This document shows positions 40,343 to 61,664 of a stretch of DNA of 64,000 bases, in pieces; within the stretch, counting starts at the first letter, position 1, and each line of letters begins with the position of its first letter. The notes beneath the pieces were generated by a model. It was given only the letters and a program-made list of their open reading frames with translations. It had not been told where the DNA came from and did not search any database. Position numbers and translations under genes: made by a program. Source of the stretch: Methanoregulaceae archaeon PtaB.Bin056 (lineage in GTDB: Archaea > Halobacteriota > Methanomicrobia > Methanomicrobiales > Methanospirillaceae); contig MVQD01000086.1 in the NCBI GenBank assembly GCA_002067095.1, forward strand, positions 1 to 64,000, written 5' to 3'.

Positions 40343-40346
40343 GACG

Positions 40347-41991: not shown

Positions 41992-42003
41992 GGGTCATCT
42001 TCG

Positions 42004-42267: not shown

Positions 42268-42275
42268 GTGGGCTG

Positions 42276-42300: not shown

Positions 42301-42762
42301 ACCTCTGATTAATCAAAAAATTCTGATCATACTGAAAATGGCAGCTCCCGGTCCGGGACCATGAGGAAAACAGGATGTGGGAATATCGTGTCATCAAGGG
42401 GATGAAAACGACATGCCCTCTCCTGCCCGCGATGGGTGGTGGGCTTCCTTCCTGCACCCCTCGCCAGAGAAAAATTCGCACCATTCACTTTTAGTTATCC
42501 TTTTCACAGACCTGCAGGGTGATCATGCGAGGAGAATGCCCCTGGAAAAAAAATGGGACGAAGGGGACCAGTGTGTGCTACTTTAATAATGTTTATCGTT
42601 CCATCATTTCAATTGTATTTGAAATAATTGGAGGGATGAATGAAACCGCAATACCTGTGCATGATGCATGCGTTATCCAGGCGGGTCCCGGAATGGCGAA
42701 ACGACGCATTCCTCGGGTTCAAGGCCCGAGGTACCGATAAAACTTCAGGGGGTGAATGAGGG
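42297..42762. other. Divergent regulatory region of the arsenic island
   Basis: Region between AbrB/ArsM and the ArsP-like permease. It holds the palindrome at 42606-42625, a TATA-like element TTAATAATGTTTA (42593-42605), and no convincing coding frame. The permease start lies at 42763. Confidence 0.5.
42606..42625. promoter_or_regulatory. Palindrome ATTTCAA-N6-TTGAAAT
   Basis: Perfect 7-bp inverted repeat with six-base spacer (TTGTAT), 138 bases before the permease gene and just downstream of the TATA-like element. It has the same core TTCAA-N6-TTGAA as the sites at 38501-38516 and 62144-62159, and may be the operator for the arsenic operon. Confidence 0.7.
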
Positions 42763-43836: not shown

Positions 43837-43849
43837 GGTGAAGTATCAT

Positions 43850-44110
43850 ATGGGAGAGAGAGATACACCGTGCTGTGCGGCAGAAGCGCTGCGCCGCATC
43901 CGCCAGGTGGATGTCGGGGGCATTACCGTCGGGCTTGCGATGCTCGACGACATCATCGACGAGGTGCAGGGGCTTTCCCTTGCATCAAAGGATGCAATCG
44001 TCAATGAACTCATCAAGCGCGTAAAGGTCTACAATTACATTCCTCCATCAGCCGAAGAGAATTACCGGAAGGCAATCCTGCGGGAGTATGAAAAAAAGGT
44101 GAAACCATGA
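43850..44110 (+). CDS. Small CC protein of arsenic operon
   Basis: 86 residues. Cys8-Cys9 near the N-terminus are followed by an alpha-helical protein with 'DVGGITVGLAMLDDIIDEVQGL' and 'VKVYNYIPPSAEENYRKAILREYE'. Similar small proteins accompany ArsP-like permeases and thioredoxin-like proteins in anaerobes. Probably a metalloid chaperone or regulator. Start 13 bases after the permease stop; the thioredoxin gene start overlaps its stop (ATGA). Confidence 0.75.
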   Translation: MGERDTPCCAAEALRRIRQVDVGGITVGLAMLDDIIDEVQGLSLASKDAIVNELIKRVKVYNYIPPSAEENYRKAILREYEKKVKP

Positions 44111-44340
44111 AGATCGAGATCCTTGGAACCGGTTGCATGAAATGCAAAAGACTGGCAAAGAACGTTGAACATGCCGTGGCTGAACTCGGCATCACCGCCG
44201 ATATCCAGAAGGTGGAGGACATCACCGCGATCATGGACCGGGGGGTTATGCTCACCCCTGCGCTGATAGTGGATGGTGAACTGAAGGTGTCAGGCCGGGT
44301 GGCCGATGTAAAAGAATTAAAGGAGATCTTACAGAGGTGA
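44107..44340 (+). CDS. Thioredoxin-like redox-active disulfide protein
   Basis: 77 residues. The active site is C10-M-K-C13 in 'EILGTGCMKCKRLAKNVEHAV'. 'GVMLTPALIVDGELKVSGRVADVKELKEIL' carries the cis-Pro loop. It belongs to the short archaeal glutaredoxin-like group (TIGR00412). Likely supplies or receives thiol electrons for arsenic handling. Overlaps the preceding gene by 4 bases. Confidence 0.9.
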   Translation: MKIEILGTGCMKCKRLAKNVEHAVAELGITADIQKVEDITAIMDRGVMLTPALIVDGELKVSGRVADVKELKEILQR

Positions 44341-44345
44341 AATCA

Positions 44346-44741
44346 ATGGCAGAGGAAGTGAAATGCGTCTGCGGTGGACCCGGCGTCGGAGAAGGCGGGA
44401 AGAAAAGAGTTCTCTTCCCCTGTTCCGGAGCCTCCAACACCGGCCAGATGTCCAACCATGCTGCGGTCCGGCTCGCACAGGAGGGGTTTGGTATCCTCGC
44501 ATGCACTGCCGGGATTCCCATCCGTGCCCCTGCGACGATGGACAAGGTCGCGAAAGGGGAGGAGATGGTTGCCATCGACGGGTGCCCCGTGGCATGTGCA
44601 AGAAAAGTCCTCGAGCAGCAGGGGATCACGGTAGGCCAGCATATCATTGTGACCGAACTTGGGATCAAGAAGACCGGCGAGCTGATACCATCCGACGAAG
44701 AGATCGAGAAAGTCGTTGACGCCGCATGGAGCGGTTCATAA
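44346..44741 (+). CDS. Putative zinc-binding DGC-domain protein
   Basis: 131 residues. Conserved DGC features: 'VKCVCGGPGVG', 'LFPCSGASNTGQ' and 'IDGCPVACARKVLE'. These cysteines bind zinc or another soft metal. Start at 44346 follows GAGGTGAAATC. Families of this type are found next to arsenic and thioredoxin genes and may act as arsenic or mercury sequestering proteins. Confidence 0.83.
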   Translation: MAEEVKCVCGGPGVGEGGKKRVLFPCSGASNTGQMSNHAAVRLAQEGFGILACTAGIPIRAPATMDKVAKGEEMVAIDGCPVACARKVLEQQGITVGQHIIVTELGIKKTGELIPSDEEIEKVVDAAWSGS

Positions 44742-44861
44742 GGCGAGCGATACGTGCATATATAGTCACGGGATATGGAATGTTCCCCTCATACATCATG
44801 CATGGACTGAATGGAGAGAGGGCAGAGGGGAAGGAGAGATCAGTATCCTTTTTAAGGGGGA

Positions 44862-45947
44862 ATGGATGTGACCGAGCGACGCCTGAGCACGTTTGAAAAA
44901 TACCTCACCGTATGGGTAGTCCTCTGCATCGTTGCAGGGATCGCTCTTGGAGCGATTGCGCCCGGTGTTGCCGTAGCCCTCGATTCCTTCTCTGTCTACC
45001 AGGTCTCGATCCCGATTGCAATAGCCCTCTTCTTCATGATGTACCCCATCATGGTGAAGATCGACTTTGCCGAGGTCCTCAAGGCCGCACGGACACCGAA
45101 ACCCGTGGCCCTCACCCTCTTTGTGAACTGGGCCATAAAGCCGTTCACAATGTATCTCCTTGCCACGTTCTTCCTCGGCTACGTCTTTGTCTCCTTCATC
45201 CCCGGGATTGATGTGCTTGCAGACGGGAGCACGGTCGAACTCTGGAGGAGTTATGTCGCAGGCTGCATCCTGCTTGGCATCGCACCCTGCACCGCAATGG
45301 TCCTGATGTGGAGCTACCTGGCACGGGGAAACGACGGCCTCACCCTGATCATGGTTGCCATCAATTCGCTCACCATGCTCGTCCTCTACGCGCCGCTCGG
45401 TGGGTTCCTCCTCGGGGTGAACGCGATGCCTATTCCCTGGGAAACCATCCTCCTCTCGGTCGCCACCTATGTCGGCCTCCCCCTCATTGCCGGGTACTAC
45501 ACGAGGAAATGGATAATCAGGAGGTGGGGTATGGCCTGGTTCGAGACAAAGTTCCTGCACGTTTTAACGCCGGTCTCGATAATTGCACTCCTGGGGACAC
45601 TCGTCCTCCTCTTCACTTTCAAGGGGAACGTCATTGTCGAAAACCCGGCAACCATCCTCTGGATTGCGATCCCCCTCTTCATCCAGACCATGCTCATCTT
45701 TTCCATCGGGTACTTCGCCCTGGCCCGCTGGCTGAAGCTCCCCTACCGGGACGCGGCACCCGCAGGGATGATCGGGGCATCAAACCACTTCGAGGTCGCG
45801 ATTGCCACGGCAACCATTCTCTTCGGGCTTGGTTCCGGAGCAGCTCTCGCAACGGTGGTGGGAGTCCTGATCGAGGTGCCCGTGATGCTCATGCTTGTGA
45901 AGATCTGCCTGCGGACGCAGGGGTTATTCCGGAGTGAACCGGTATGA
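44862..45947 (+). CDS. acr3: Acr3 arsenite exporter
   Basis: 361 residues, ten transmembrane helices. The Acr3 signature '[18 protein letters not shown]' has Cys143, essential for As(III) transport in the family, and '[14 protein letters not shown]' carries the conserved Glu. '[21 protein letters not shown]' is the second discriminating segment of the BASS/Acr3 fold. It expels arsenite with proton antiport. A TATA box TATATAG is at about 44758-44765, so the gene has its own promoter. Its stop overlaps the start of the universal-stress gene (ATGA). Confidence 0.9.
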
Positions 45948-46807
45948 AAATGAAATCAATGCTTGTGCCATTAGAAATCCATGGTGCGGGAGCGGTGATG
46001 GTCCCTGCTGTGGAAGAGATCGCCCGTCTCGGTATCGAGAGGGCTGACCTGCTGTATGTGATCAACATTCGTGAGACGGCAGGTGATCCAGGGTTATATA
46101 CACATGACCAGGAGGTGATGAACGAGTGGAAGAACCGCATACAGGCATGCGGGGTTAAAGATGTGAACGTTGAGGTTGCCAAAGGCATCCCCTGGATCGA
46201 GATCCTGGAAAGAGCAGAGGGAAAACTTCCCTCCCTCATCGTGATGGGTTCGCACGGCAGATCTCTCATCCCCCGCATGCTCCTCGGAAGCACGACCGAG
46301 AGTGTGCTCCATCATGTAACAGCCCCCCTCCTTGTCCTCCGCCTCACAATCATGAAGAGTGGTGACCCTGACACCTGCACAATTCGCCAGGGGCTCTTCC
46401 GGCGGGTCCTCTACCTCACCGACTTCTCCGGACCGGCAGAACGGTGCATCCCGTTCATCGAGTGGCTGGCCGGTGCGAAACCCGAGCAGCTGGTCATCAT
46501 GCACGTCCAGGACACCCGTCGTCTCTGGACTGCTACGCAGAAACAGATTGCTGAATTCAACCACAAAGATGCCGGGAGGCTCGCAGAACTGAAAAAACGG
46601 TTTGAATCGACCGGTATCCCCCAGGTCGTGACCGAGCTCGTCACCGGAAATGCAATCGATGAGATCCTGGCAGTGGAGGACTCCTTCGCACCGACCATCA
46701 TCGTGATGGGGGCAAAGGGCAGGACGAGCAGCGTGAGTTCCCTCCTGGGGGGTGTCACGGAAGCAATAGTCCACCGGGCAAAGGCGCACGTGCTGGTAGC
46801 AAGGTAG
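45944..46807 (+). CDS. Tandem universal stress protein
   Basis: 287 residues containing two UspA domains. ATP-binding G-x2-G-x9-G motifs occur in both: '[16 protein letters not shown]' near residue 103 and '[16 protein letters not shown]' near residue 257. Sequence order is typical for archaeal tandem USPs. Coupled to acr3 by a 4-base overlap. Likely a nucleotide-sensing regulator of stress or transport. Confidence 0.9.
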
Positions 46808-46901
46808 GACATGGGGGATCCAAGGAAGCATCGGATCCGTAAAGGCGGCCCCGAATGGCCTGGAAGACGACTCTTTCAGGGGTTATATCAAGTACGGAGC
46901 A

Positions 46902-47711
46902 ATGAGTGAAGGGATTGAAGAGGTGAATAAAAGAATGACTCATGTTGAAGATGTGAGAAGAGCCGGACAGAGGATGAGAGAGATCCTCGGCCTTCATGGG
47001 GCCCCCATCGGGGTTCGTTTCCTGAAAAAAGACCAGATGGATCGTTTGGCTGAACCCTGCTCGGAAGGGCACATGCGGTTCTGCCAGGCGCTGATGCGGG
47101 CCCGGCATGGGATGAGAACGGTGATCTGCAAGGAGAACATTGCATGCCCCGCTGCGGCCTGTGCATTCGGGTTCAAGCCGCTTCCAGAGCCGTTGAAGAC
47201 CGGCAAGGGTCTCGTCGGGTTCGGCATCACGGCAAGGGAAGAGGTCGGGGTGAGGATGTTTGAGGGGATGACGGTCTTTGACAAGGGTAATATTGACCGG
47301 ATCGAAGTATTCCCTCTCGATCAGGCCCGGAAAGAGCCGGATGTCGTGGTGGTCGAGGACGAGGTGGAGAAGCTGATGTGGATAGTGCTCGCCTCGATGC
47401 ACAGCCATGGCGGTGAACGGGTCCGCGGGACAACGGCCGTCCTCCAGGCCACATGCGTAGATGCAACAATCATCCCTTACCAGGAACAGCGGCTCAATTT
47501 CAATTTCGGGTGCTACGGGTGCAGGGATGCGACCGACATCGGCCCGGGTGAAGCGATCGTCGGGTTTCCGATCGATGAGCTCCCAGCAATCATCACCCAC
47601 CTGGAATACCTGAACAAGAAAGCGCTCCCCCATTCTCGGGGCAAGCATGCCTTGGAAGCGTTCATGAAACAACAGAAAGGTGGGGATGAAGGTTCATGCT
47701 CCTCGCTGTGA
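46902..47711 (+). CDS. DUF169 protein
   Basis: 269 residues. Signature phrases of DUF169 are 'LGLHGAPIGVRFL', 'RFCQALMRARHGM', 'CKENIACPAAACAFGF' and 'NFGCYGCRDATDIG', together offering about eight cysteines. The family is poorly characterised and common in anaerobes and methanogens; its cysteines suggest binding of a metal, heme-like or arsenical ligand. It is inside the arsenic island, giving a possible functional link. Confidence 0.85.
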   Translation: MSEGIEEVNKRMTHVEDVRRAGQRMREILGLHGAPIGVRFLKKDQMDRLAEPCSEGHMRFCQALMRARHGMRTVICKENIACPAAACAFGFKPLPEPLKTGKGLVGFGITAREEVGVRMFEGMTVFDKGNIDRIEVFPLDQARKEPDVVVVEDEVEKLMWIVLASMHSHGGERVRGTTAVLQATCVDATIIPYQEQRLNFNFGCYGCRDATDIGPGEAIVGFPIDELPAIITHLEYLNKKALPHSRGKHALEAFMKQQKGGDEGSCSSL

Positions 47712-47730
47712 CCAACAGAGGGGCTTGAAA

Positions 47731-47745
47731 ATACATGTGATGTAT
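47731..47745. promoter_or_regulatory. Palindrome ATACAT-GTG-ATGTAT
   Basis: A perfect 6-bp inverted repeat with a 3-base spacer, 95 bases before the BASS-type transporter. It might be a regulatory site or a small terminator of the DUF169 gene. Confidence 0.4.
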
Positions 47746-47839
47746 CATGCACACAGGCGTGCCGAATACGCACGCGATACGCTTGTTCCAGGCGTAAACA
47801 AGGAAAAATGAAGGTTTCAGGCAAGCCCCGGGGGATATA

Positions 47840-48874
47840 GTGGCAAAGAGAAATGCGCTGCTGAAGTATGCAGCATTCACGAGAGAATACTATGCACTTA
47901 TCATCATTGCAACCCTTCTCGTGGCAGTAGCAGTCGGGCTGGTCTCATCCGCTCCAGGCCAGGTTCTCCAGCAGTACAGCGTGCTGTTCATCGTGATCAT
48001 GATCGGGGCGATGGGCTTCTCCATCACTTTCAAGAGCCTCAGTGCCTCCCTCAAGGAATGGTGTGCACGCTGCCTCTCGCTCGGACTGGTATTGAACTTC
48101 CTCTTTGCACCGTTCCTGTGCTGGCTCCTTGCACTCCTGCTTCTCCAGGAATATCCTGATTTTGCCGTGGGCCTCATCCTTATCGGCGCGGTCCCCTGCG
48201 CCGGGATGGCCATGGTATGGACCGGTCTCCTGAAGGGTGACCTCCCGCTCGCGACAGTCATCAATGCCGTGACGATGGTGCTCGCACCCTTCCTGATCCC
48301 ACTGATCATGCTCTTTTTTGCCGGGCGCTTCGTCGTTATTGATACGGCTGCCATGTTTGTGCAGGTGCTCCTCACCGTCCTCTTACCCCTCCTTGTCGGC
48401 ATATCCCTGCGGGAGATCCTTGAATGGAAGACCTGTGCCCACAAAAGCCAGGATGAACCCCAAATACGCGGCGCGAAAGGGAGGGAGAACAGCGTTCAGC
48501 ATATACTCCCCGTCATGTCTGCAGTCTCCGCGACCATGGCAGTCCTGCTCATGTTCATGGCGATCAATACGAGCATCCCGCTCATAATCAAAAATCTGCA
48601 GGCAATAATACCGCTCATCGTATCCACCGTGGCAATTTTCCCTATTTTGTTCATTATATCGTACGCGATCAGCATACGGCTCTTCCCCCATGCCCAGAAC
48701 ATTGCCCTCACCTATTCTTCCGGAATGAAAAACCTCCCCATTGCCATCGGGATAGCCTCGGTCAGTTTCGGGGGGCTCGCGATGCTGCCAGTCGCGGTTG
48801 GATTTGCCTTCCAGATGCTGACCGCAGTCGGGTTTTACCAGGTGTACAAGAGATCATCTTTAGGCAACCGTTAA
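47840..48874 (+). CDS. Bile acid:sodium symporter family transporter
   Basis: 344 residues, nine or ten transmembrane helices. Start is GTG at 47840 after GGGGGATATA. Family features: 'VGLILIGAVPCAGMAMVWTGLLKGDLPLATVINAV' and 'MKNLPIAIGIASVSFGGLAMLPVAVGFAFQML'. The PC motif matches Acr3/BASS proteins, so it may be a second arsenite or metalloid carrier. Substrate not certain. Confidence 0.85.
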   Translation: MAKRNALLKYAAFTREYYALIIIATLLVAVAVGLVSSAPGQVLQQYSVLFIVIMIGAMGFSITFKSLSASLKEWCARCLSLGLVLNFLFAPFLCWLLALLLLQEYPDFAVGLILIGAVPCAGMAMVWTGLLKGDLPLATVINAVTMVLAPFLIPLIMLFFAGRFVVIDTAAMFVQVLLTVLLPLLVGISLREILEWKTCAHKSQDEPQIRGAKGRENSVQHILPVMSAVSATMAVLLMFMAINTSIPLIIKNLQAIIPLIVSTVAIFPILFIISYAISIRLFPHAQNIALTYSSGMKNLPIAIGIASVSFGGLAMLPVAVGFAFQMLTAVGFYQVYKRSSLGNR

Positions 48875-48900
48875 TTGGGTGGAGAGAGGAGAGATTTTTT

Positions 48901-50313
48901 ACGGACGTTACAGCCTGTTCTCAAAACACCAAAAGGAACCAGCGCGCCATCCTCCTTGTCGCAATACTCACCTCGTTTCTTACGCCCTTCCTGATCTCCT
49001 CTGTCAATATTGCAATCCCTGCCATAGGATTGGAATTCGGGGCAGATGCCGTCCTCCTCGGCTGGATCCCGACATCCTACATACTGGCGTCGGCGATCTT
49101 CCTCATCCCGGTAGGAAGGCTTGCCGACATCCATGGCATGCGGCGGGTCTTTTTCCCGGGGATCGTCATTGTCACCATCGCAACAGTTCTCTGTGCATTC
49201 TCCATCTCGACCCCCATACTCATCGGTTTTAGGGTACTCCAGGGGATAGGGAATGCCATGGTCTTCTCGACTGCGGTTGCCGCGCTCACCATTATATATC
49301 CACCCGGGGAGCGGGGCATGGCGCTTGGGCTCAGTGTAACGGCGTCCTACATCGGGCTCTCCCTCGGCCCTTTCATTGGAGGGATATTGACCCAGAACCT
49401 CGGATGGCGGAGCATATTCCTTGCCACAATTCCGATCTCGGCACTTATCATCCTCCTGCTCATGCAAAACGGTGACGAGTGGACAGAGAAAATCCCGGAG
49501 CGCTTCGATCTTGCAGGGTCCATCGTCTACGGCTCCATGCTCCTCTGCCTGATGTACGGCCTCTCGCTCCTCCCCGGGACGGAAGGGTGGACGTTTATCC
49601 TTGGCAGCCTGCCATTGCTCGCAATCTTTATTGGCTGGGAGATGCGCATCGAGAGCCCGATTATAAAGATCAGCCTGTTCCTGGAGAACCGCGTCTTTTC
49701 CTTCTCGAGCATCGCAACGATGATCAATTACAGTGCCACCTTTGCCACAAGCTTCCTCCTTGCACTCTACCTCCAGTTCAACCGGGGATTTGACCCCCAG
49801 GCAACAGGTCTCATTATCATGGCGCAGCCGGTCGTGCAGGCAGTCTTTTCCCCCGCGGCAGGCCGGCTCTCTGACCGCGTGGAGCCGGGACTCATCGCAT
49901 CAGCAGGGATGGGTGTAACGGTGGTCGGGCTTGCGATGCTTGCCCTCCTCGCAGAGGAGACGCCTCTTCTCTTCATCGTGGCCGCCCTCGTGGCCCTTGG
50001 CATCGGTTTTGCGCTCTTCTCATCGCCAAACACGAATGCTGTCATGAGCTCGGTAGACCGGAAATTTTTTGGCGTTGCCTCAGCCACCGTTGCAACCGCC
50101 CGCCAGGTCGGGATGATGCTCTCTCTCGGTGTCACGATGGTGATTTTCTCGGCGGTCATCGGGCGTGTCCAGATCACCCCGGAAGTGCACGCGCAACTCC
50201 TGGCAAGCATACAGATAGCCTTCGCTCTCTTTGCAGTCCTCTGCGCGGCGGGAATCTACTTCTCGCTCGCACGAGGGAGGGTGAGGGGGAGACAGTCTGG
50301 GCCAGCACAATGA
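48901..50313 (+). CDS. MFS drug exporter, DHA2 type, start unresolved
   Basis: About 470 residues. 'AILLVAILTSFLTPFLISSVNIAIPAIGLEF' is TM1 of a DHA2-type exporter with 14 helices; 'GWIPTSYILASAIFLIPVGRLADIHGMRRVFFPG' gives motif A, and 'VLQGIGNAMVFSTAVAAL' motif C. The first canonical start in frame is TTG at 49030, which would remove TM1. Coding similarity begins near 48930, but the frame has no ATG/GTG/TTG there. A different-frame GTG at 48879 with AGAGAGGAGAG beside it suggests an insertion or deletion near 48920-48940, or a rare start codon. Confidence 0.82.
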   Translation, partial: TDVTACSQNTKRNQRAILLVAILTSFLTPFLISSVNIAIPAIGLEFGADAVLLGWIPTSYILASAIFLIPVGRLADIHGMRRVFFPGIVIVTIATVLCAFSISTPILIGFRVLQGIGNAMVFSTAVAALTIIYPPGERGMALGLSVTASYIGLSLGPFIGGILTQNLGWRSIFLATIPISALIILLLMQNGDEWTEKIPERFDLAGSIVYGSMLLCLMYGLSLLPGTEGWTFILGSLPLLAIFIGWEMRIESPIIKISLFLENRVFSFSSIATMINYSATFATSFLLALYLQFNRGFDPQATGLIIMAQPVVQAVFSPAAGRLSDRVEPGLIASAGMGVTVVGLAMLALLAEETPLLFIVAALVALGIGFALFSSPNTNAVMSSVDRKFFGVASATVATARQVGMMLSLGVTMVIFSAVIGRVQITPEVHAQLLASIQIAFALFAVLCAAGIYFSLARGRVRGRQSGPAQ

Positions 50314-50555
50314 GTGTCAATGCTCAAAACATCAGGCGCATGGGAACCGGGCCTCCTTTCCGTGCTGAGGCACCTGAACTCTGGCTGACTCCGGGAACGG
50401 TTCACTTTATCGGGTGCGGCGTTGTGCAGGGTCTTTCCAGGGGAGGTTCGTCTGGACAGTATGCCCCTCATGCAATGGTTCCTGCGCGAATCTCCTGCCC
50501 TGGAAATTCGCCACGGTTACGTGGTTGATCGATTCGACAGCAGAGGCAGGGGAGG
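50314..50555. other. Intergenic, 242 bases
   Basis: Convergent gap between MFS and the AAA+ gene. Nothing recognised. Confidence 0.3.
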
Positions 50556-53500
50556 TCAGGGGCCTCTCCTGTTCAATGCCACTTTGTATTCCTGTGCCCC
50601 CGATTGACCAACAATTTCGAAATTAACCTGACCGGCGAGGGTCGTCGGTTGATCGTCGAGAATATGGTTCTTCTCCAGGAAAGCCATGATCCCGTCCTCA
50701 AGGATTACCTGGACACGCCCCTCTTCCGGGACACAGGAGATATCGGCGATCGCGGTCCCTTTCCATGAGGTCGTATCACTTGTACCCCTGTTGATCCGGA
50801 CTGTCTCTTCGGGATACCCCGTCTCATCGAGGGAAAAGAAGGGCGTCCCATCATCACCGGTGATTCCAAGCCGGAACCGGTGCTCCACGGGGCGGTATTC
50901 GATTGACAGGACCCCAAGATCAAACCTTTCGACTGGGTCAGCAGGCATCCCGGTCCGGGAATAGCGCCACGGATATGCCGACCGTGAACAGGAAGAGATA
51001 AGATCCCTGATTATCCGTGCGTGCCGGTCATCTCCTGTGACCGCGATCCTTGAAAAATGTCCGGTGACCTCTGCGAGTTCTTCTTCCCCGACCGGGTTCT
51101 CTTCGGCAAGCCAGAAACCGCGGACCATGACGGGGCCCTGGTCTCCCGGCCGTTTCAGGTCATGGAGGAAACGGACGATGAACACCGAACGGCGGTCCAC
51201 ATCCCCCTCCACCCCGGTCCTCACAAGGATATCGCCCCGGGAGAGTATCGTCGAGCCGGCCGGGATCGGCTCGGAAAAATGCCTGTACCCGAGGAGAATG
51301 GCCCGTGCCTTCACCTCGAAAGGTATGTCGCGTGGTCTTTTCCGGGCGAAGAGGGAAGAGGCAATGTACGAACGGAGATCCCTGAGAAATGCCTGGGCTT
51401 CCGGGGACCTGGCTTCTTTGTGCCTGCCCTCGCATGTGTCCAGCTGGGAAAAGGGGATATACAACCGGTGAATCCCCAGAACCCGGTTGTCATTTCCGGG
51501 GACTTCTGATGGGAAAGGGGACCCGGCGGCAAGATCGACACACTGGTGCCTGGTACCGTTTGTCTCTGCAACAAGCATTATCCTGACCCGGGAGTCCGGG
51601 AGGATGGTATACATGACATCGCCTGTCCCCATCTGGGGTGCCCCCGAAAGAGGACGCGCATACCGAATGATCTCGTGGAGACGGGATTTGAGCAGTTCTG
51701 CGCGGGGGACGAGATCATCTTCGTGGTGTGCTGCAAGAGGCACCACGCGCCACGAGAGCGCTCCTGCCGCTCCCCTGCCCAATTCCCCGGGAACATGGTC
51801 GGTCCCGGAGAGGACAAGCGTCAGTTGAGAGTCTTTTTCCCTGTAGAAGAGGTGGACAAACGGATCCTGGGGAAGTGCACGCTCCGATACCCGGCCGTCC
51901 GGCAGGGATGCGTGGAACACCCCGGATCGTCCCTTGCCATCCTTCATCCAGCCATAGCGTGTGATCCCTGTTTCCTGGCCCGATGGCGCGACCGCTACCG
52001 ACCAGTCTCCTCGTTGGGAAGCAGTAATCGTCACGGTCCCACCTCCGGCCTCCAGTGTTCGGACGACAGTTCCGTCCCTGCAGACAGGAGATTTCCAGGG
52101 CGGGGAGGGAAGAGTGCAGGCCAGGTGGGAGAGACCCAACCCGGTGCCTGTTCTCTGGATGAACTCAGTGACAAGGTGGCTCAAGGGGGCATCATCCTCC
52201 CGTGGACCTGCGGTGCTGCCAGGATGGGTCTTTTTCCCGTCGCATTCATAGATGCAGAGGCCATGCCCTATATCCTGGAAGACGAGGTGGAAGGTCGCAG
52301 AGAACCGGTTGAGGGAAGGGAGGCAATGCCCGCCCCTCTCCGAGATGATGAGTGCGGCATTTCCAGTCTTCGTATTGACTGCCTCAAGCACAATAACGGG
52401 TCTCTGATCTTTGATCTCCGTGTCCGCCCACAGGACCCTGTATTCCTCGTCGTTGTCCACCCGGATTTCGCGACAGGCAGGAAAGGCGTTTTGAAGTTCC
52501 TCTTCTGCTCCCCTCACCTTTCCGGTCTGGAGGTGGATTTCCGCACTCGCAAAGGAGAATACCCAGTCCCGCAGGGGGTTTCTTGAGAGCATCTCCCGGC
52601 ATATCCCGAGCGCCGCTTCCGGCTTGCCGAGACGCCGGTATGTGTCGACAAGGGAACGTGCAAGGCTCTCGTTATTCTTATCTGATTCCCAGGCGCAACG
52701 GAACTCTGCCAGTGCAGATGATGCGGGGATGACATCCCGGTCAAATCCCCCGGCAACAAGTGCGTTCCGGATGGCATTCAGTTCACGGGCATCCCGCGGA
52801 GCATATCCCGCACAGAGCAGATCAACGAGATTTATGGCCTGGTGCGGGTACTGGAGCCCCCGCTCGATTGCAGCCTCCTCGTTTCGCATGGTGATGGGTT
52901 CAAAAAGGATCCCCCCGCTGTAGAGCGGATGGAGCGCATAGTAGCCGTTCACGATATCGCGGATGAAGTCGATGTCGGCTTCTGCATATTTTGCATGGAG
53001 CACTTCCACCGCCTGGTCAGGGGGAAGGTGTACGATGGTATGGATTGAGAACCTGTCCATGAACTCGAACGAGAAGTCGTTCACCTCGTAAGGTGGCCGG
53101 TTTGGATTGATATTGACGCATATCGTGGCCCGGACCGTGGCTTCCTGCCCACCCGGCAAGCGGACGGTGCGGTCCTGGAGGAGGTCGTTCAAGGAGACCA
53201 GCACTCCCTGCTTTGCCTTGTTTGCCTCGTCCAGGACAACGATCCATTTCTGCCGGTCATCGGTCAGGGCACGCAGCCCAAGGGTCGCGGTATCCCCGGT
53301 CTTTCCCTCCTCCTCTTCGCCGAAACTGCGGTAGGTCAGGAGGTCCGAGACCCGGGTCCCCCCGCTCATCCCGATGACCAGCAGGTTCCAGTTGAGGAGG
53401 TGCGCAAGGTAGCTCTCAAGCTTGTTCTTTCCTACCCCTGCCTCGCCGATCAGCATGATGTGCTCTCCAAGCACGATATCCTGTAAAATCGCTTCGAGGT

Positions 53501-54680
53501 CGGAGAGGTTCTGCGGGACCTCCTCGATGCACGTGTCGGGCACGAATGGCCCGCCTGGGCCGAGGGGGTGCGTAACGGTGCCGATTGAAAGGTGCGGGAG
53601 AGATCCTTTTTCACTGACTGCCACCCTGGATCGCTCGATGTGGCGGCGCTCCCCGTCATGGATACCATGGAGATCGAGGAGGTCATCCACAAGTCTCCTG
53701 GCGACAGCAGGGTGGACCTGGTCATCGAGCCAGTACATCTTTCTCCAGAACAGGGATCGAAGCATGGCCGCGTCGTCCGGGAACATCTCGAGGTGGCGGA
53801 CCACGCGAATCAGGGCCCGGGTCGTCACAGGGAACGGGAGGACCCCGTGCTCTTCGGCATAATCCCGCCGGATATCCTTTGCCACGGCCAGGAGCCGGTC
53901 GATCAGCACGTCATCCACGTGGGGCCCGTAATCCTTCAGGATCTCGAATTCCTCGTCCTGGGGGAGATAGGATACCTGGACCTTGTTCGTAAACCTGTTT
54001 GCGAACTCGCCGCTCATCACCCTCCCCTCGTAGATCCCCCGCCCCTCGCTCTTGACCGGGTTTGCAGTCGCGATGAAACGGGTATCGGGATGACCCCGGA
54101 CGACCTGCTGGTGCAGTGACTTGGCCTTGTTCTCCAGCGGCTCGTTGAATTCGGCCCAGACCTCCTCGCTGCTGCGGTTCACTTCGGAGAGAACGTTCCA
54201 GTCACCCGCCACCATCCCGTCCAGCACGTCGCTCATGGTCCACCCCGTCTTCTCCTGCCCGGACTCCCCGTAGTGACGCCGCTCGGTGATATCAGACCGC
54301 CGCAGGTTCTCGTGGAAGGTGAGGACCCTGACCTGGAACGCTGTCGCCCGTTGCCGTACGTGGCCGGCATCGAGGTGTCCTTCTCCCTGCGAGGCATGCG
54401 CGAGCATTGCCTGCCGGTAGAGTTCTCCCAGGTAACGGACGAGGACAGTCTTTCCCGAGCCGGATTCACCGGTGACAAGGAGGTTATTCCGCGATGGCAT
54501 CCTGATCCCGTCCCACATCTTCTGGAGGGATGCGACGTTCGTAGGAGTGAGCAGGAGACGAGGACTCTCCGGGGCAGGGATCTCAATGTCACCGATCGCA
54601 AGGACCGTTGCAACAGTGACCCGGTGACCCTGCCGGGATGACACGACACGGAGGGGGCCAAGGCGGCTCAGTTCGAACAT
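50556..54680 (-). CDS. Tandem-AAA+ MoxR/CobS-like ATPase with TPR
   Basis: 1374 residues. AAA1 (about 40-340): Walker A GESGSGKT at 71-78, Walker B site 'WNVLSEVNRS' at 161-170 with Ser in place of the usual Asp, sensor 1 'ATANP' 204-208 and arginine finger R229. AAA2 (about 375-650): 'GEAGVGKN' at 412-419 with Asn in place of Ser/Thr, full Walker B 'VVLDEAN' 481-487, sensor 'CVNINPN' 521-527 and R543. Then TPR-like helices (about 655-735) and an unrecognised C-terminal 600 residues. Pairing of MoxR/CobS ATPases with vWA proteins is typical of chaperone or metal-insertion machines. Start overlaps the vWA gene by 13 bases. Confidence 0.85.
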   Translation of the reverse strand: MFELSRLGPLRVVSSRQGHRVTVATVLAIGDIEIPAPESPRLLLTPTNVASLQKMWDGIRMPSRNNLLVTGESGSGKTVLVRYLGELYRQAMLAHASQGEGHLDAGHVRQRATAFQVRVLTFHENLRRSDITERRHYGESGQEKTGWTMSDVLDGMVAGDWNVLSEVNRSSEEVWAEFNEPLENKAKSLHQQVVRGHPDTRFIATANPVKSEGRGIYEGRVMSGEFANRFTNKVQVSYLPQDEEFEILKDYGPHVDDVLIDRLLAVAKDIRRDYAEEHGVLPFPVTTRALIRVVRHLEMFPDDAAMLRSLFWRKMYWLDDQVHPAVARRLVDDLLDLHGIHDGERRHIERSRVAVSEKGSLPHLSIGTVTHPLGPGGPFVPDTCIEEVPQNLSDLEAILQDIVLGEHIMLIGEAGVGKNKLESYLAHLLNWNLLVIGMSGGTRVSDLLTYRSFGEEEEGKTGDTATLGLRALTDDRQKWIVVLDEANKAKQGVLVSLNDLLQDRTVRLPGGQEATVRATICVNINPNRPPYEVNDFSFEFMDRFSIHTIVHLPPDQAVEVLHAKYAEADIDFIRDIVNGYYALHPLYSGGILFEPITMRNEEAAIERGLQYPHQAINLVDLLCAGYAPRDARELNAIRNALVAGGFDRDVIPASSALAEFRCAWESDKNNESLARSLVDTYRRLGKPEAALGICREMLSRNPLRDWVFSFASAEIHLQTGKVRGAEEELQNAFPACREIRVDNDEEYRVLWADTEIKDQRPVIVLEAVNTKTGNAALIISERGGHCLPSLNRFSATFHLVFQDIGHGLCIYECDGKKTHPGSTAGPREDDAPLSHLVTEFIQRTGTGLGLSHLACTLPSPPWKSPVCRDGTVVRTLEAGGGTVTITASQRGDWSVAVAPSGQETGITRYGWMKDGKGRSGVFHASLPDGRVSERALPQDPFVHLFYREKDSQLTLVLSGTDHVPGELGRGAAGALSWRVVPLAAHHEDDLVPRAELLKSRLHEIIRYARPLSGAPQMGTGDVMYTILPDSRVRIMLVAETNGTRHQCVDLAAGSPFPSEVPGNDNRVLGIHRLYIPFSQLDTCEGRHKEARSPEAQAFLRDLRSYIASSLFARKRPRDIPFEVKARAILLGYRHFSEPIPAGSTILSRGDILVRTGVEGDVDRRSVFIVRFLHDLKRPGDQGPVMVRGFWLAEENPVGEEELAEVTGHFSRIAVTGDDRHARIIRDLISSCSRSAYPWRYSRTGMPADPVERFDLGVLSIEYRPVEHRFRLGITGDDGTPFFSLDETGYPEETVRINRGTSDTTSWKGTAIADISCVPEEGRVQVILEDGIMAFLEKNHILDDQPTTLAGQVNFEIVGQSGAQEYKVALNRRGP

Positions 54681-57600
54681 ATGTCCTCTTCCAATACATG
54701 TCCAGGACTGTCAGACTTCCACCCGGCCATTGCAGGGCGTCCGAGCTCTCTCCTGAGCACCTCTCCAAGAGACCTGGGGAGATCGGCAATGTCGTGGACC
54801 CATGTCCCGTACGGCCTATACGTGTCCTCGATCATCTCCATGTCCGGCCCCACTCCCCATGCAAAGATGCGGATGTCATTGTGGCGGGAGAGGATCTCCT
54901 TCATCTGTGTCCTCCCCCCGACCCCCGACTGGCCGTCAGATATGAGAAAGATCATACGGTTTTTTCCCTGTGAATCCCGAAGCCTGGCCATCCGGTCGAG
55001 TGCGCTGCCGACGGCACCGACATCATTGGTACCCCCGGACGCATGGATGACCTGCCGGATACAGAAACATCCCTGCTGAATGGTCCAGTCGTCCTGGTAG
55101 CGCTTCAGGGGGATATACTCGGAGTCGGTAAATGCTGCAATCTCGAACCGTATGCCTGTGACATGGCTGAGCGCCTCCCCAAAGAGAACGACAGCCTGGA
55201 GCGTGGCATCCAGTTTCTTCGACACGGTCTCGTCATGCATGCTGCTGCTCGCATCGACGAGGAGGGAGATGGTCCACCGGGCCTTGTCCTCCTGGCGGCC
55301 GGTCTCCTTGAATATCCGCATCGTGGTCCTGACCGCCGCGAGGTTCTCCTCGTCGATGTCGTCTCCGGTCGCAAGTTCAGTCAGGTCCAATGTCGCCAGA
55401 TCTTTCTGGAACGCCTGCTGGATGTTCTTCCTGGCCACTCCGACCAGGCCGGCGACCGGCTGGTAGAACCGCTGGTACAAGGCGTAATCGTCCTGCCCTA
55501 CAGCGAGGTACTCGTAGAGGGCGACCTGCCGGACCCTTTCTGCACTCTCGTCCAGAGTCTCCCATTCACTCCTCGTCCGTTCCCGGAGGGTGGTGAGGTA
55601 TTGTTCTGCCTCCCGCGTAAGGGCGAGCTTTTCCTGTTCAAAGCGTTTTTCAGTGGTATCCCGAGAGATCCGGGAAGATGACGATCCGCTCACGTTCTCT
55701 TCTCGATCATCCCCGTAAATGGCATCGAAGTAGGAGAAACTCTCCCAGAGTTCAGGGCTTGATACGGCGTCCGGAACAAACGCGGGTTCCAGGCGCCCCG
55801 TGGCAGGCAGTTCCCCGGCCTCACTCGTATTTCCGCCTGCGGTTTCGGGAAGCCGTACCCTTGCCTGCCATTCACCGGCTTCTGGTTCGGGCACTGTCCC
55901 TGCGACACGCTGGAACTCGGCCCCTTTCTCCTGCAGGGCAGAGAGGGCTTCTCTTGTCATTCCGATGCGGGAACCGGTGTCCTGCCTCTCCATCCCGGGA
56001 AGCTCTGCCATGTGTTCAAGTGCCGTTGCCATTTTACGGTATTTTCGTGCAGCCCGGCAGATATCGCGGGAGAGCGTGAGCAGTGCATTCCATTCCTCCC
56101 CCCTCTTCCCCCGATCCCCCCCGGACTCAGGGCCGGGCGGGGACCCATGCGACGCAGCAGGGCCCAGGTTCCTGATATCCTCTTTGATCCTGTCAGCCAT
56201 GCTCTCAAGATGCCGTGCTGATCTCCCGAGTTGACGGCAGGTGTCAGGACTTCCGCGATCCCGCGACACTCCCCCGGAGGCAAGGGTATCAAGGAGTTCG
56301 CTGCTCTCCTGGCATTCCCTGACAAAACGACTGGCAATGTCCTTCACCGAATCACTGTTTCTCCGGGGCCCCTCCGAAACATGGCCCGGGACTTGCTCGC
56401 CGTCTCTTTCCTCCCGCATGTCCGGGCGGGGTGTACCGGTCCCCCCGTCTTGGGCAGTCCCCTCATGGGCAGACGTGATGGGAACCTTGTACTCTTCATC
56501 GTCCAGGAATCCTGATTTCCTCCCGGAAAGTATCTTCCCGGCCGTATTCGCGCGGGGTGCATGCGGTCCCGGGACCTGCAATCCAAATGCCGAAACCGAC
56601 GAAAGGGGGACAATGCCGGGGTGCGGTGCTTCAGGTCTCCCGGGCAGACGTCCCGTAGTTTTGCCGGATACAGGTTCCTGTACGAATAGCGGAGCGCACA
56701 ACGGCAGGATCTCGTCCATGACTATCTTTTGGCACTCCTGGTCGGTAAGGTGAAGATTGCTGACTTTTTCCCGGGCATTTCGTGTCCCGTCCAGAACGAG
56801 TTGAACAGCAGGTGAGCGCCGCGTGTCCGGCCTTATCCCCACCCTTGATTCTAAGAGCACCTCTGCAAGGAACTGGTCGGCAGGTGGGAGCAGGTGGACT
56901 CTTGCGCGATCTGCACAGAAATCGGGCTCTCCTGATACAAGGGAATAGAACCGGTTCAGCCAGGTAGCGGCCCCGGGATGGACTGCCAGTCCCTTGCGGA
57001 CCGCACGATGGTTTCCGGTTACTGCGAAAAGGAGCGATATCCAGCTCTTGGGCAGGGAGGACTCCATCGCAATCGGGGGCCGAAAACCGAATATGGACCT
57101 GTAATATGCCTCGATTGCAAGCGCCAGGGCCGATTCCCTCTCCATGTATGCCAGGTCCCTCGGGTCATACACGAGGACTTCCCGTTCGTTTATGACTTCC
57201 AGCGGGAAAATGCGTGCACTACCTTGCGTAAACGGGAAACATCGCCACGAGTATTTCCCGGTGAGGACATTCAGAAGGTGCCTGATCTCCCGAACAGTCT
57301 CGTCAAGGCTGCGGACAAGGTCTGGCCCGGGCTGTGCACGTCCAGAAGGCTGCGATGCCGCCTCCCGAAGGAAATCAAGAAATATTCGTGGCAGGCTGGA
57401 AGAGGTGTTGCTCGTGGGCCCATGCGGTTCATCGGATGTTGAATCGCCTTTGCCTTGACCACATGCAAACCCCGCAAGCACGTGCCCGGCACACTGCTCA
57501 AGGTCTGGTTGGACCATCTCCCTTTCCCCTGTGGATAGGGACTGGATGATACTGTCTGCAGCCCGGTAGAATACCCTGACATCTCGCGCCTCACCGCACT

Positions 57601-58384
57601 GCCGGATCGCCTGCCCTGATGTGAAGAGCGCAGCGGTCAATGGGGGCGAGTCCTTCAGGAAAATCTCTACACCACCATCTCCCCCGGATCCAATGATGCC
57701 GAGGTCCCCGATCGCCTGGTGCACGAGGCCTGGGAAATGCGTACCCGGGAGGGAATGGGCATGAACAAGGTAACAATAGACGGCTCTTGAGACCTTTGCA
57801 CAGAACGTGGCACGGTCGACACCCAGGGGGAGAGGAATCCACCCTCCAGCGGCAGCATTGCTCCAGAAAAAGGGGGGAAGATCCAATCCCGCCGATTCCA
57901 GGAGAAGAATGGTGGGAAACCTCTGCATGCGCGTGATGTCCGGGGAGAGGATGTCGGGAAGAGTGAGGGGGCGGGCAGCTGAACGAAGCGTCTCCTCGAG
58001 TTCCACGGGGTCGGGTGGCGCCAGGGCCCATGCCCAGTCACGGCATATCCTGCCGACCATGGACGCCTCTTCTGCAGTGATCCCACCTCCCATCAGGGGG
58101 ACCAGGTCAAGCACGTCAATAATTCCGGCAACCGTTTCTTTCCCGGAACCTAACCCGTGAATGGCGATCCCCGCCAGTTCTTCACGCGATATCCCAGACT
58201 CCCTGATGATGGAAATATGACGGGAGATTTTTTCAAGTGCCGTATGGTATCGTTTTGGATCCGCGGGTGCGACAAGCGCATCCATTGTGACCTCGTGTTC
58301 GGAACAGCTGTCGAGGAGTTCAACAAGAGAACGGCAGATCTCATCGATCTCAAAGAGAATAGGAGCCCTGGCTCCCTCATCCAT
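54668..58384 (-). CDS. vWA-domain protein, CobT/NorD-like
   Basis: About 1238 residues from the ATG at 58384, which follows GGGGAGCG; ATGs at 58432 and 58513 lack such a site. The C-terminal domain (about 1037-1220) is a vWA fold with the MIDAS motif D-A-S-S-S (D at 55255-55253), threonine in 'GGTND', and D in 'ISDGQS'. The segment before it ('ATGDDIDEENLAAVRTTMRIFKE') looks like CobT/NorD relatives. The first 800 residues are helical, rich in charged residues, and of unknown family. It would bind the AAA+ partner via the vWA domain and bring substrate. Translational coupling to the next gene is likely. Confidence 0.82.
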   Translation of the reverse strand: MDEGARAPILFEIDEICRSLVELLDSCSEHEVTMDALVAPADPKRYHTALEKISRHISIIRESGISREELAGIAIHGLGSGKETVAGIIDVLDLVPLMGGGITAEEASMVGRICRDWAWALAPPDPVELEETLRSAARPLTLPDILSPDITRMQRFPTILLLESAGLDLPPFFWSNAAAGGWIPLPLGVDRATFCAKVSRAVYCYLVHAHSLPGTHFPGLVHQAIGDLGIIGSGGDGGVEIFLKDSPPLTAALFTSGQAIRQCGEARDVRVFYRAADSIIQSLSTGEREMVQPDLEQCAGHVLAGFACGQGKGDSTSDEPHGPTSNTSSSLPRIFLDFLREAASQPSGRAQPGPDLVRSLDETVREIRHLLNVLTGKYSWRCFPFTQGSARIFPLEVINEREVLVYDPRDLAYMERESALALAIEAYYRSIFGFRPPIAMESSLPKSWISLLFAVTGNHRAVRKGLAVHPGAATWLNRFYSLVSGEPDFCADRARVHLLPPADQFLAEVLLESRVGIRPDTRRSPAVQLVLDGTRNAREKVSNLHLTDQECQKIVMDEILPLCAPLFVQEPVSGKTTGRLPGRPEAPHPGIVPLSSVSAFGLQVPGPHAPRANTAGKILSGRKSGFLDDEEYKVPITSAHEGTAQDGGTGTPRPDMREERDGEQVPGHVSEGPRRNSDSVKDIASRFVRECQESSELLDTLASGGVSRDRGSPDTCRQLGRSARHLESMADRIKEDIRNLGPAASHGSPPGPESGGDRGKRGEEWNALLTLSRDICRAARKYRKMATALEHMAELPGMERQDTGSRIGMTREALSALQEKGAEFQRVAGTVPEPEAGEWQARVRLPETAGGNTSEAGELPATGRLEPAFVPDAVSSPELWESFSYFDAIYGDDREENVSGSSSSRISRDTTEKRFEQEKLALTREAEQYLTTLRERTRSEWETLDESAERVRQVALYEYLAVGQDDYALYQRFYQPVAGLVGVARKNIQQAFQKDLATLDLTELATGDDIDEENLAAVRTTMRIFKETGRQEDKARWTISLLVDASSSMHDETVSKKLDATLQAVVLFGEALSHVTGIRFEIAAFTDSEYIPLKRYQDDWTIQQGCFCIRQVIHASGGTNDVGAVGSALDRMARLRDSQGKNRMIFLISDGQSGVGGRTQMKEILSRHNDIRIFAWGVGPDMEMIEDTYRPYGTWVHDIADLPRSLGEVLRRELGRPAMAGWKSDSPGHVLEEDICSN

Positions 58385-58513
58385 CGCTCCCCAGCCGTTA
58401 TTGCCTCTGTATGCGGACTGTTCCTTTCCCATGGGATCTTGCTGTGTGGTTTTCCTGCTCTGCCTTTTATTGTGTAATTGTTGGCAGGGAAATGGCAAAA
58501 GTGCATGGATCAT

Positions 58514-58671
58514 GACATGAAAGAGGTGTCACGTGCGTGACCCATGGGAAGGTTGACGGATCATGCCGATGGACAACACCCTGGAAAAATGAGAGAAGGG
58601 TGCAGGGAGTGATGGCCTTTTACGATGCAGGATGCCTGAGACAATCAAAAAGAGAGGAGGGGACTTCGTGC
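58514..58671. other. Short intergenic region
   Basis: Includes the promoter of the vWA gene on the minus strand and the tail of the MarR remnant. No separate element recognised. Confidence 0.3.
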
Positions 58672-59235
58672 TCATCCGACACGTACGAGTCGGCGAATGA
58701 ACAAGCCTTCCCAGGAGTACCCTATAATTCCGCCGATGATGTGTCCGGCAACAATGTACGGGCGTGCCGGGCCTGCCATCATTCCGGCCTGCCCGCAATC
58801 ACCTCCGGCGAAATGAATACTGTGTCGTGCCATCGCGCGCATGTGCTCCCGCATCAGATCCCGGTCTTTTGGGGGGATTGAAGAAAGGAGAGTCTCCTCC
58901 CACTCGTCATTCACCTTGTGGATCTCCGCGATGACCTCCTTTCCCTTTTCTGTCCGGAAAAGACGATACGCACGCCGGTTTCTGGCATCAGTCCTCCGTC
59001 AGATGAACCCCTCTTCTTCGAGCCGGCGGACGGCCACGGGCAATGGTTACCTTGTCAAGGTAAAGAACCGGGCAAAGGTTTCCCGTATCATCCCATCCCT
59101 TCGGGACAGGAACATCAGTATCGGGGATTGCCCTGCAGAAATGCCCCTTGGTTTCAGGCGTGTATTAAGGAGAATGAGGTGGTACCTGTTATTAAAGGAG
59201 AACAGTTCCCCCATTTGAAGATCCTGGTGCAAAGG
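58672..59235 (-). pseudogene. MarR-type regulator gene with multiple disruptions
   Basis: Assembled from different frames, the strand gives a MarR protein: 'YHLILLNTRLKPRGISAGQSP' then 'MFLSRRDGMIRETFARF', then in another frame 'LDKVTIAR', then 'AVRRLEEEGFI' followed by a TGA and directly 'RRTDARNRRAYRLFRTEKGKEV' and 'WEETLLSSIPPKDRDL'. These are the MarR dimerisation, recognition helix and wing segments in order. At least two frame changes (near 59060 and 59035) and one in-frame TGA (near 59000) disrupt it, so it is non-functional. It precedes the CDF gene, which it may once have regulated. Confidence 0.75.
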
Positions 59236-60488: not shown

Positions 60489-61664
60489 ATGACTGCCATC
60501 AACGACCTTGTCACATCAGGCCAGTTCTTCCTCACAATTGCCGCGGAACTCATTCTGCTTTTTATCGGGATCAGTTTTCTCGTAGGCCTCATCCAGGAAT
60601 ATGTGCCGGAAGAGAAGATCAGGCGTGCGCTCACCACCAGGCACATCATGACCGGGACTGCCCTTGGTGCAGTGTTTGGTGCACTCACCCCTTTCTGCTC
60701 GTGTTCGACAATTCCCATACTATTAGGGTTGATCAGGTCAAAAGTCCCGTTCGGGGCATGCATGGCCTTTCTTTTCGCATCGCCTCTCCTGAACCCGATC
60801 ATCGTCTTCATGATCCTCGCATTCTTCGGGCTCGCGCCGACGCTGATCTACTGCACCATGACATTCTGTATCGCAGTGTGCTCCGGCATCGTGCTCGAAC
60901 GCCGTAATTTTCTCCGTTATGTAAAGCCAATCGGAACAGGGAAGGGGAAGAGTATAGGTTCTCCACTATCCAGCGGGTGTTCCTGTACCAATGCTCCCAC
61001 ACCTGCAGTATCATCTTCCTGCTGTTCAGAGAGCCCTGTCATACCCCCGGTTGTACCATCGCCTGGATGTTCTTGCAACACAGAACAGAGTCTTCCCCCT
61101 GCGGGGTCAACAGCCTGCTGTCCTGGCAGTCCTGTTGCCCAACCGGGACATGAATCCACCGGGAGCTTCTTCAATGCGGCACCCACACCAGGGTCCGGGT
61201 GCTGCAGCAGGGATACCGGTGCACCCTCCCTGCACCGTACGCGTATATATTCAGCACTCCATTCTGCGCTGTCGCTCTTCCGGCAGGTACTTCCGTACCT
61301 CATCCTCGGTGCTGCAATTGGTGCCTTTATCTACGGGTTCGTGCCGGAAGACCTGATTGTGGCACTTGCCGGCCCTGGCAATCCCCTGGCAATCCCGGTC
61401 GCCGCAATTATCGGCGTCCCGATGTACATACGGGCAGAGACTATAATCCCCATCAGTGCCGTGCTCCTCGCAAAAGGCATGGGGATCGGTGCGGTCATGG
61501 CACTCATCATCGGGGGAGCAGGGGCAAGCATCCCGGAAGTGACGCTCCTTGCCTCGATCTTTGAGAAGAGACTCGTCGCAGCATTCGTGGTCACGATTGT
61601 CGGGGTTGCGATCCTGACCGGGTTTCTCTTCCAGGTTCTCCAGACCACTGGAGTGTTCGGATGA
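60489..61664 (+). CDS. ArsP-like permease with cysteine-rich insert
   Basis: 391 residues. The permease core has 'GALTPFCSCSTIPILLGLI' (Cys70, Cys72), 'ASPLLNPIIVFMILA' and 'GVPMYIRAETIIPISAVLLAKG', as in the COG0701/ArsP family. Between the two halves, residues 164-239 form a hydrophilic Pro/Ser loop with ten cysteines in five close pairs (C-S-C, CC, C-S-C, CC, CC), longer than in the homologue at 42763. The loop probably binds metalloid or metal in the cytoplasm. It stands directly before an ArsR gene. Confidence 0.88.
   Translation: MTAINDLVTSGQFFLTIAAELILLFIGISFLVGLIQEYVPEEKIRRALTTRHIMTGTALGAVFGALTPFCSCSTIPILLGLIRSKVPFGACMAFLFASPLLNPIIVFMILAFFGLAPTLIYCTMTFCIAVCSGIVLERRNFLRYVKPIGTGKGKSIGSPLSSGCSCTNAPTPAVSSSCCSESPVIPPVVPSPGCSCNTEQSLPPAGSTACCPGSPVAQPGHESTGSFFNAAPTPGSGCCSRDTGAPSLHRTRIYSALHSALSLFRQVLPYLILGAAIGAFIYGFVPEDLIVALAGPGNPLAIPVAAIIGVPMYIRAETIIPISAVLLAKGMGIGAVMALIIGGAGASIPEVTLLASIFEKRLVAAFVVTIVGVAILTGFLFQVLQTTGVFG

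What the first reader, a model, noticed from the sequence alone, without database searches (positions are those of the whole stretch)
50556..58384. Two-gene tandem-AAA+/vWA machine without known relatives nearby
A vWA protein of about 1240 residues and a tandem-AAA+ protein of 1374 residues overlap by 13 bases and carry long, unrecognised extensions on both. AAA+/vWA pairs are known as MoxR/vWA, NorQ/NorD, CobS/CobT, CbbQ/CbbO and ChlI/ChlD; in ternary conflict systems such pairs are accompanied by further effectors. Here no substrate gene (chelatase subunit, Rubisco, nitric oxide reductase) lies beside them, yet they are in a metalloid/thiol region. The long extensions suggest a dedicated substrate or defence role.
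Basis: partly seen in the sequence, partly recalled or inferred. Interest (0 to 1): 0.78.

Follow-up and report, generated by a model that had tools for sequence, protein, structure and literature searches.

The report
Mobile tandem-AAA+/vWA remodelling gene pair
Two overlapping genes in a methane-producing archaeon encode a large double-motor ATPase and its partner protein, a self-contained machine that arrived in this genome as a pair and is related to the engines that mature metal enzymes and ribosomes, but whose target is unknown.

Summary
The pair is real: vWA protein (54668-58384, -, 1238 aa) followed by tandem-AAA+ protein (50556-54680, -, 1374 aa), overlapping by 13 bp. The same pair with the same overlap stands at all 7 junctions read. 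It is in 8 of 232 genomes of the order, all in one family, in 0 of 12 congeners, and not full-length in phage or plasmid records. Walker, sensor, arginine-finger and MIDAS residues are invariant. The AAA+ core and the vWA end are strongly conserved; the long extensions evolve 3-5 times faster, still under constraint. In a close congener the MFS and MATE genes that flank the pair lie 25 bp apart, so the pair entered as a two-gene cassette and the metal/metalloid surroundings are incidental. AAA1 is nearest to CobS; AAA2 and the vWA are nearest to a six-AAA+vWA midasin-like giant of other archaea, itself a threefold repeat of an AAA pair. Most likely it is an ATP-driven ring (three tandem subunits) that twists a docked vWA partner, as in NorQ/NorD, CobS/CobT and midasin. 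Target unknown; defence versus maturation undecided. A new variant of a known kind.

The parts
54668..58384 (-). vWA protein, 1238 aa, first gene of the pair
   Evidence: start chosen by homologue starts and a GGGGAG stretch just upstream
56705..58384 (-). vWA protein residues 1-560: helical N-terminal domain, unrecognised, fast evolving
55715..56704 (-). vWA protein residues 561-890: low-conservation linker rich in G/S/P/T/N/Q
55280..55582 (-). vWA protein residues 935-1035: near-invariant block (DYxxYQRFYQPVAGLxGVARKNIQQ...DIDEENLAAVRTTMRIF); candidate pore finger / docking element by position relative to NorD (inference)
   Evidence: conservation; finger of NorD lies before the vWA core
54740..55279 (-). 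vWA domain with intact MIDAS (DASSS, GGTND, SDGQS)
54668..54680 (-). 13-bp overlap of the two genes (ATGnnnnnnTNA core), GGAGA/GGAGG stretch upstream; identical length at 7 of 7 junctions
50556..54680 (-). tandem AAA+ protein, 1374 aa, second gene of the pair
53661..54533 (-). AAA1 (residues 50-340): P-loop GESGSGKT, Walker B NVLSEINR, sensor TxNP, Arg finger NRF; nearest to CobS
52761..53528 (-). AAA2 (residues 385-640): P-loop GEAGVGKN (Asn for Thr/Ser, invariant), Walker B VLDEANK, Arg finger DRF; nearest to the archaeal six-AAA protein
52482..52733 (-). TPR-like helices, residues 650-733
50559..52478 (-). beta-rich C-terminal arms, residues 735-1374, fold not matched to a known one, fast evolving
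50291..58670 (.). inserted segment (8.4 kb) absent between the MFS and MATE genes of congener G010
58675..59232 (-). remnants of the MATE gene (last ~27-36 codons) and a broken MarR gene, which mark the right edge of the insertion

Best explanation
A self-contained, horizontally acquired AAA+/vWA remodelling machine. Tandem AAA+ subunits assemble into one six-site ring (most simply three copies of the two-AAA protein). The vWA protein docks on the ring through its near-invariant pre-vWA block and vWA domain, and binds a protein target with its MIDAS site and/or its helical N-terminal domain. ATP turnover in the ring turns the vWA domain and stretches the flexible linker (residues 561-890), changing the conformation of the target held between the vWA and the N-terminal domain or the TPR/beta arms of the AAA protein. 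Shown here: intact active-site motifs, fixed gene order and overlap, conserved engine with faster extensions, insertion as a pair. Inferred from NorQD, CobST and midasin: ring, docking, twisting. Unknown: the target; because no partner gene travels with the pair, it must be a host or invader protein or lie within the extensions.
For: Two AAA_5 domains and a C-terminal vWA. P-loop K, catalytic E, sensor N and Arg-finger R of both AAA domains, and all MIDAS residues, invariant in the loci aligned. Same pair and same 13-bp overlap at 7 of 7 junctions: a fixed 1:1 operon. Conservation sits in AAA1-AAA2 (61-90%) and the last ~340 aa of the vWA protein (59-78%), the parts that must fit each other, versus about 16-47% in the extensions. 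dN/dS 0.07-0.09 in the engine, 0.2-0.35 in the extensions. AAA1 nearest to CobS (hhalign score 161 against 82-108 for other groups), AAA2 and the vWA nearest to the archaeal six-AAA+vWA giant, whose AAA domains fall into two clades alternating A-B-A-B-A-B, which makes a ring of three AAA pairs a natural form. The linked vWA/AAA twisting mechanism is documented for NorQD (PMC13036017) and peptide capture by MIDAS for MoxR/vWA pairs generally (PMC7159879).
Against: No biochemistry; ring, stoichiometry and docking are by analogy. AAA2 has an unusual P-loop (GKN) and AAA1 an altered Walker B (SE for DE), so one site may bind but not turn over ATP. The tree does not resolve whether AAA1/AAA2 of the pair correspond to the B/A domains of the giant. 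No relative of either extension outside the family to tell the target.
Confidence: 0.6

Rival explanations
1. Accessory conflict (anti-virus) system: the extensions sense an invader component and the ATPase switches or executes the response, in the manner of MoxR/vWA conflict systems.
For: Patchy presence (8 of 232 genomes of the order, 0 of 12 congeners); gain as a two-gene cassette with an orthologous locus lacking it in a congener and presence/absence also in a second genus; sensor-like extensions evolve fastest, one stretch of the vWA protein (codons 200-300 of the aligned pair) at dN/dS ~0.8 in both species pairs tested.
Against: No third component or effector domain, which define the published MoxR/vWA ternary systems (PMC7159879); no specific PADLOC match; no recognisable defence genes beside it in the loci read; absent from viral and plasmid collections.
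Confidence: 0.4
2. Maturation/metal-insertion or assembly factor for one accessory host complex, like NorQD, CbbQO or CobST.
For: AAA1 is CobS-like (PHROG 249); all well-studied AAA+/vWA pairs of this kind are assembly or insertion factors (PMC13036017 and PMC7159879).
Against: No candidate client next to any of six contexts; insertion into genomes without co-transfer of a client; fast extensions.
Confidence: 0.4
3. An alternative motor for the cobalt/nickel chelatase (CobN).
For: CobS-like AAA1; G000 encodes one CobN.
Against: G000 already has a 680-aa AAA protein of ChlI/ChlD type on the same contig as CobN (type inferred from length and N-terminus); CobN is on another contig than the pair, in no homologous locus, and present in genomes that lack the pair (Methanosarcina, Methanocaldococcus controls).
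Confidence: 0.05
4. Prokaryotic midasin: acts in ribosome assembly.
For: Profile E 3e-29 to midasin, and a six-AAA+vWA relative in archaea.
Against: That E-value is a sum over six repeats; the best single midasin domain scores 27.6 bits, no better than CobS at 28.9. Present in a small minority of genomes, so not needed for ribosomes.
Confidence: 0.03

Closest known systems
CobS/CobT (cobaltochelatase AAA+/vWA)
   Same: AAA1 is most similar to CobS; separate vWA partner; H2-insert AAA+ fold family
   Different: CobS has one AAA; no CobN partner here; CobT-type vWA compares much worse than the giant's vWA; both extensions absent from CobS/CobT
NorQ/NorD and CbbQ/CbbO
   Same: Two-gene AAA+/vWA machine, vWA C-terminal after an N-terminal domain and linker; conserved block before the vWA where NorD has its pore finger
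   Different: Single-AAA ~270-aa NorQ against a 1374-aa tandem protein; no NO reductase or Rubisco gene; N-terminal domain not alignable by the tools used
Midasin (Mdn1/Rea1) and the archaeal six-AAA+vWA giant found here (L051, L052)
   Same: Several dynein-related AAA domains plus a C-terminal vWA; vWA and AAA2 are nearest to the archaeal giant
   Different: Two AAA in one chain and vWA in another; giant has six AAA, a beta-propeller insert and one chain; no ribosome link
MoxR-vWA ternary conflict systems (Kaur et al. 2020)
   Same: AAA+ of the MoxR clade with vWA protein, large variable regions, patchy spread
   Different: No third component or effector; tandem AAA; found in methanogens, not in multicellular bacteria

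Membership tests
MoxR/vWA clade of AAA+ machines (broad) | dynein-related AAA_5 domain with helix-2 insert, next to a vWA protein gene | tested here: met
   (region between strand 2 and Walker B)
MoxR/vWA clade of AAA+ machines (broad) | intact Walker A/B, sensor, Arg finger, and MIDAS aspartates | tested here: met
   AAA2 P-loop GKN and AAA1 Walker B SE are deviations, invariant in the family
CobST cobaltochelatase | meets the curated CobS model cut-off (558 bits) | tested here: not met
   20.6 bits
CobST cobaltochelatase | genomic link to CobN | tested here: not met
   CobN only on contig C35; none in homologous loci read by eye
Midasin | six AAA domains and MIDAS in one chain | tested here: not met
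   two AAA, vWA on another chain
MoxR-vWA ternary conflict systems | third conserved component (VMAP, iSTAND, FtsH or beta-propeller protein) or effector domain | tested here: not met
   inserted segment holds only the two genes; bpMoxR match is weak, 19.8 bits against a cut-off of 27
Known anti-phage systems (PADLOC) | specific match to a system protein | tested here: not met
   only generic P-loop matches, E >= 9e-5
AAA+/vWA remodellers of NorQD type (mechanism) | physical complex, pore finger, ATP-driven turning of vWA | not testable with these tools
   needs biochemistry or a complex prediction

The most novel reading that the evidence does not exclude
The pair and the six-AAA giant are members of an unrecognised archaeal, midasin-like branch: mobile remodelling machines in which a ring of three AAA pairs drives a vWA arm; the two-gene form is the split, threefold-assembled version of what the giant makes in one chain, and it acts as a new class of defence or host-takeover-resistance device.
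Probability: 0.2. Interest if true: 0.82.

Novelty: new variant of a known kind. Interest (0 to 1): 0.55.

Why it matters
It adds a family-restricted, mobile AAA+/vWA machine with a tandem ATPase and two large unassigned client-facing regions, and links it to an archaeal protein with the midasin layout whose six ATPase domains are a threefold repeat of a pair. That makes a testable route from homo-hexameric MoxR rings to single-chain rings such as midasin (pair, then triplicated pair), and offers a compact two-protein system in which to ask what a MoxR/vWA machine does when it travels without its client.

Tried and rejected
Midasin as the closest relative on the strength of E = 3e-29: rejected, because that is summed over repeats and the best single domain (27.6 bits) equals CobS (28.9). 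An internal repeat in the AAA C-terminal arms: segment-against-segment hhalign gave nothing (probabilities under 9%). Homology of the vWA N-terminal domain with the pre-vWA region of the giant, including a decayed HExxH-like site: hhalign 50.8%, not enough; Foldseek gave selecase/jannalysin hits with probability up to 0.97 but E 0.7 on a low-confidence model, so left open. Fold of the AAA C-terminal arms: only TPR segments match. A dTALE match of the vWA N-terminus has no stretch passing on its own and was discarded. AAA hits in Vibrio, Methylomonas and Thioalkalivibrio plasmids are CobS-like single-AAA modules beside DUF3150 and vWA genes, and the Mycobacterium phage hits were read only as AAA-ATPase, not family members. 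Burkholderia and Caballeronia hits: no P-loop motif found in frames of the one examined. Repeats at the insertion edges: none of 8 bp or more. GC3 of the pair does not differ from neighbours. The conserved Cys near the vWA C-terminus is forced by the overlapping ATG, so it is not evidence of function.

Full report
What is there. On the minus strand of the window a vWA protein gene (54668-58384, 1238 aa) is followed by a tandem-AAA+ gene (50556-54680, 1374 aa), overlapping by 13 bp. Pfam recognises two AAA_5 domains and one C-terminal vWA domain, little else; NCBIfam, PADLOC and PHROGs give only generic P-loop or CobS-like matches. Homologues start where the ATG at 58384 lies, so the 1281-aa version from 58513 is less likely.

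Relatives. The full-length AAA protein is found in 8 of 232 genomes of the order, all in one GTDB family, and in none of 12 congeners. A scan of one genome for each of 84,980 species found five loci, all Methanomicrobiales or kin, but it depends on short exact peptides and would miss distant relatives. Plasmid, phage and viral collections hold no full-length relative. In all seven junctions read, the vWA gene precedes the AAA gene with an overlap of exactly 13 bp and a GGAG-type stretch before the second start: the two are made as one unit.

Anatomy. Residues of both ATPase sites are invariant across the family: AAA1 GESGSGKT, SE(I/V)NR, TxNP, NRF; AAA2 GEAGVGKN, DEANK, NINP, DRF. AAA2 has Asn where Thr/Ser is usual, and the A-type domains of the giant described below have Asp there. 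The vWA domain keeps DASSS, GGTND and SDGQS. Identity to the window protein is 61-90% over most of the AAA part and 59-78% over the last 340 residues of the vWA protein, against about 16-47% in the AAA C-terminal half and 20-41% in the vWA N-terminal part. Between two closely related pairs dN/dS is 0.09 and 0.07 in the engine parts and 0.27-0.35 in the extensions, so the extensions are constrained but faster; one stretch near codons 200-300 of the vWA protein reaches 0.8 in both species pairs. AlphaFold models, from only six sequences, give TPR-like helices and then beta-rich domains for the AAA C-terminus (mean pLDDT 75) and a helical, poorly determined N-terminus for the vWA protein (61); Foldseek finds no reliable match apart from TPR. 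Neither extension was found in any other protein of 325 archaeal genomes.

How it got here. In the close congener G010 the block 38593-50290 of the window is 86-90% identical in DNA, then the MFS gene (stop at L079:13107) is followed after 25 bp by a convergent MATE gene and a MarR gene. The same order MFS-MATE-MarR stands in G003 and G007. In the window the pair lies exactly between: MFS ends at 50313, and at 58675-58755 comes the last bit of the MATE gene fused to a broken MarR gene (58789-59232). With 0 of 12 congeners carrying the pair, a gain of an 8.4-kb segment holding only these two genes is the simplest reading. G009 has Ku and ligase-like genes in the same gap. A second genus shows presence and absence: G477 is syntenic with L035 up to position 4375 and then lacks the pair. 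Neighbours of the pair differ between genera: Hel308-like helicase, asparagine synthase-like and GatA/GatB, ABC transporter and MoeA-like, HisD-like (names from reading the sequences).

Position among known machines. hhalign of AAA groups: AAA1 scores 161 with CobS, 108 with the B domains of the giant, 106 with haloarchaeal MoxR, 82 with the giant's A domains; AAA2 scores 106 with the A domains, 99 with B, 71-72 with CobS and MoxR. The vWA part scores 76 with the vWA of the giant, 30-32 with CobT-type, 20-38 with haloarchaeal MoxR partners. The giant is a 3261-3311-aa protein with six AAA_5 domains, a beta-propeller insert and a C-terminal vWA, found in 3 of 112 genomes of its family, all in one genus. 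Its domains 1, 3, 5 and 2, 4, 6 form two fully supported clades: a threefold repeat of a pair. Whether the AAA1/AAA2 of the window's pair correspond to B/A is suggested by scores and by the GKN/GKD P-loops but not resolved by the tree, where long branches meet. The striking E-value to midasin (3e-29) is a sum over repeats; per domain it is no better than CobS.

Mechanism. [quoted passage not shown] The pair has the same order of parts: N-terminal domain, linker, near-invariant block before the vWA core, vWA. I therefore infer a ring of three tandem subunits driving the vWA protein. The target is not known. Because nothing travels with the pair, the client is either common in hosts or comes from invaders; I give maturation and defence about equal odds.

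Verdict. Observation confirmed; interpretation partly supported; a new variant of the AAA+/vWA kind, of moderate to good interest, raised by its mobility and its tie to the archaeal midasin-like giant.

Noticed in passing
L051:3778-13563 (+) and L052:3635-13570 (-); also G570:C155: A midasin-like archaeal giant: six AAA_5 domains in an A-B-A-B-A-B pattern, a beta-propeller insert and a C-terminal vWA in one 3261-3311-aa chain; confined to one genus (3 of 112 genomes of the family). Neighbouring genes look like those of Methanosarcinaceae.
   Followed up: partly
L034:2588-3538 and 1-2676 (-): In genome G351 the AAA gene is split by a frame change near residue 296; pseudogene or assembly error not decided.
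   Followed up: no
window 58675-59232: Remnants of a MATE efflux gene and a broken MarR gene that are intact in congeners.
   Followed up: yes
L083:6705-9777: In G009, Ku and ligase-polymerase-like genes sit in the same MFS-MATE gap where the window has the pair: a possible insertion spot without repeats.
   Followed up: no
L053, L054, L032: Haloarchaeal loci with a MoxR-type AAA gene, a vWA gene and a very large third gene (1000-1900 aa or more), two copies in one genome: candidates for MoxR-vWA ternary systems in archaea.
   Followed up: no
window 42763-43836 and 60489-61664; 44862-45947 and 47840-48874: Two ArsP-type permeases and two SBF/ACR3-like transporters within 20 kb, partly conserved in synteny in congeners.
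   Followed up: no
L051:12067-12095 region (residues ~2764-2772): HEIFE motif followed by NGIGDIWIN before the vWA of the giant, reminiscent of a metallopeptidase-like domain; the corresponding region of the window's vWA protein would have lost it (homology not established).
   Followed up: partly
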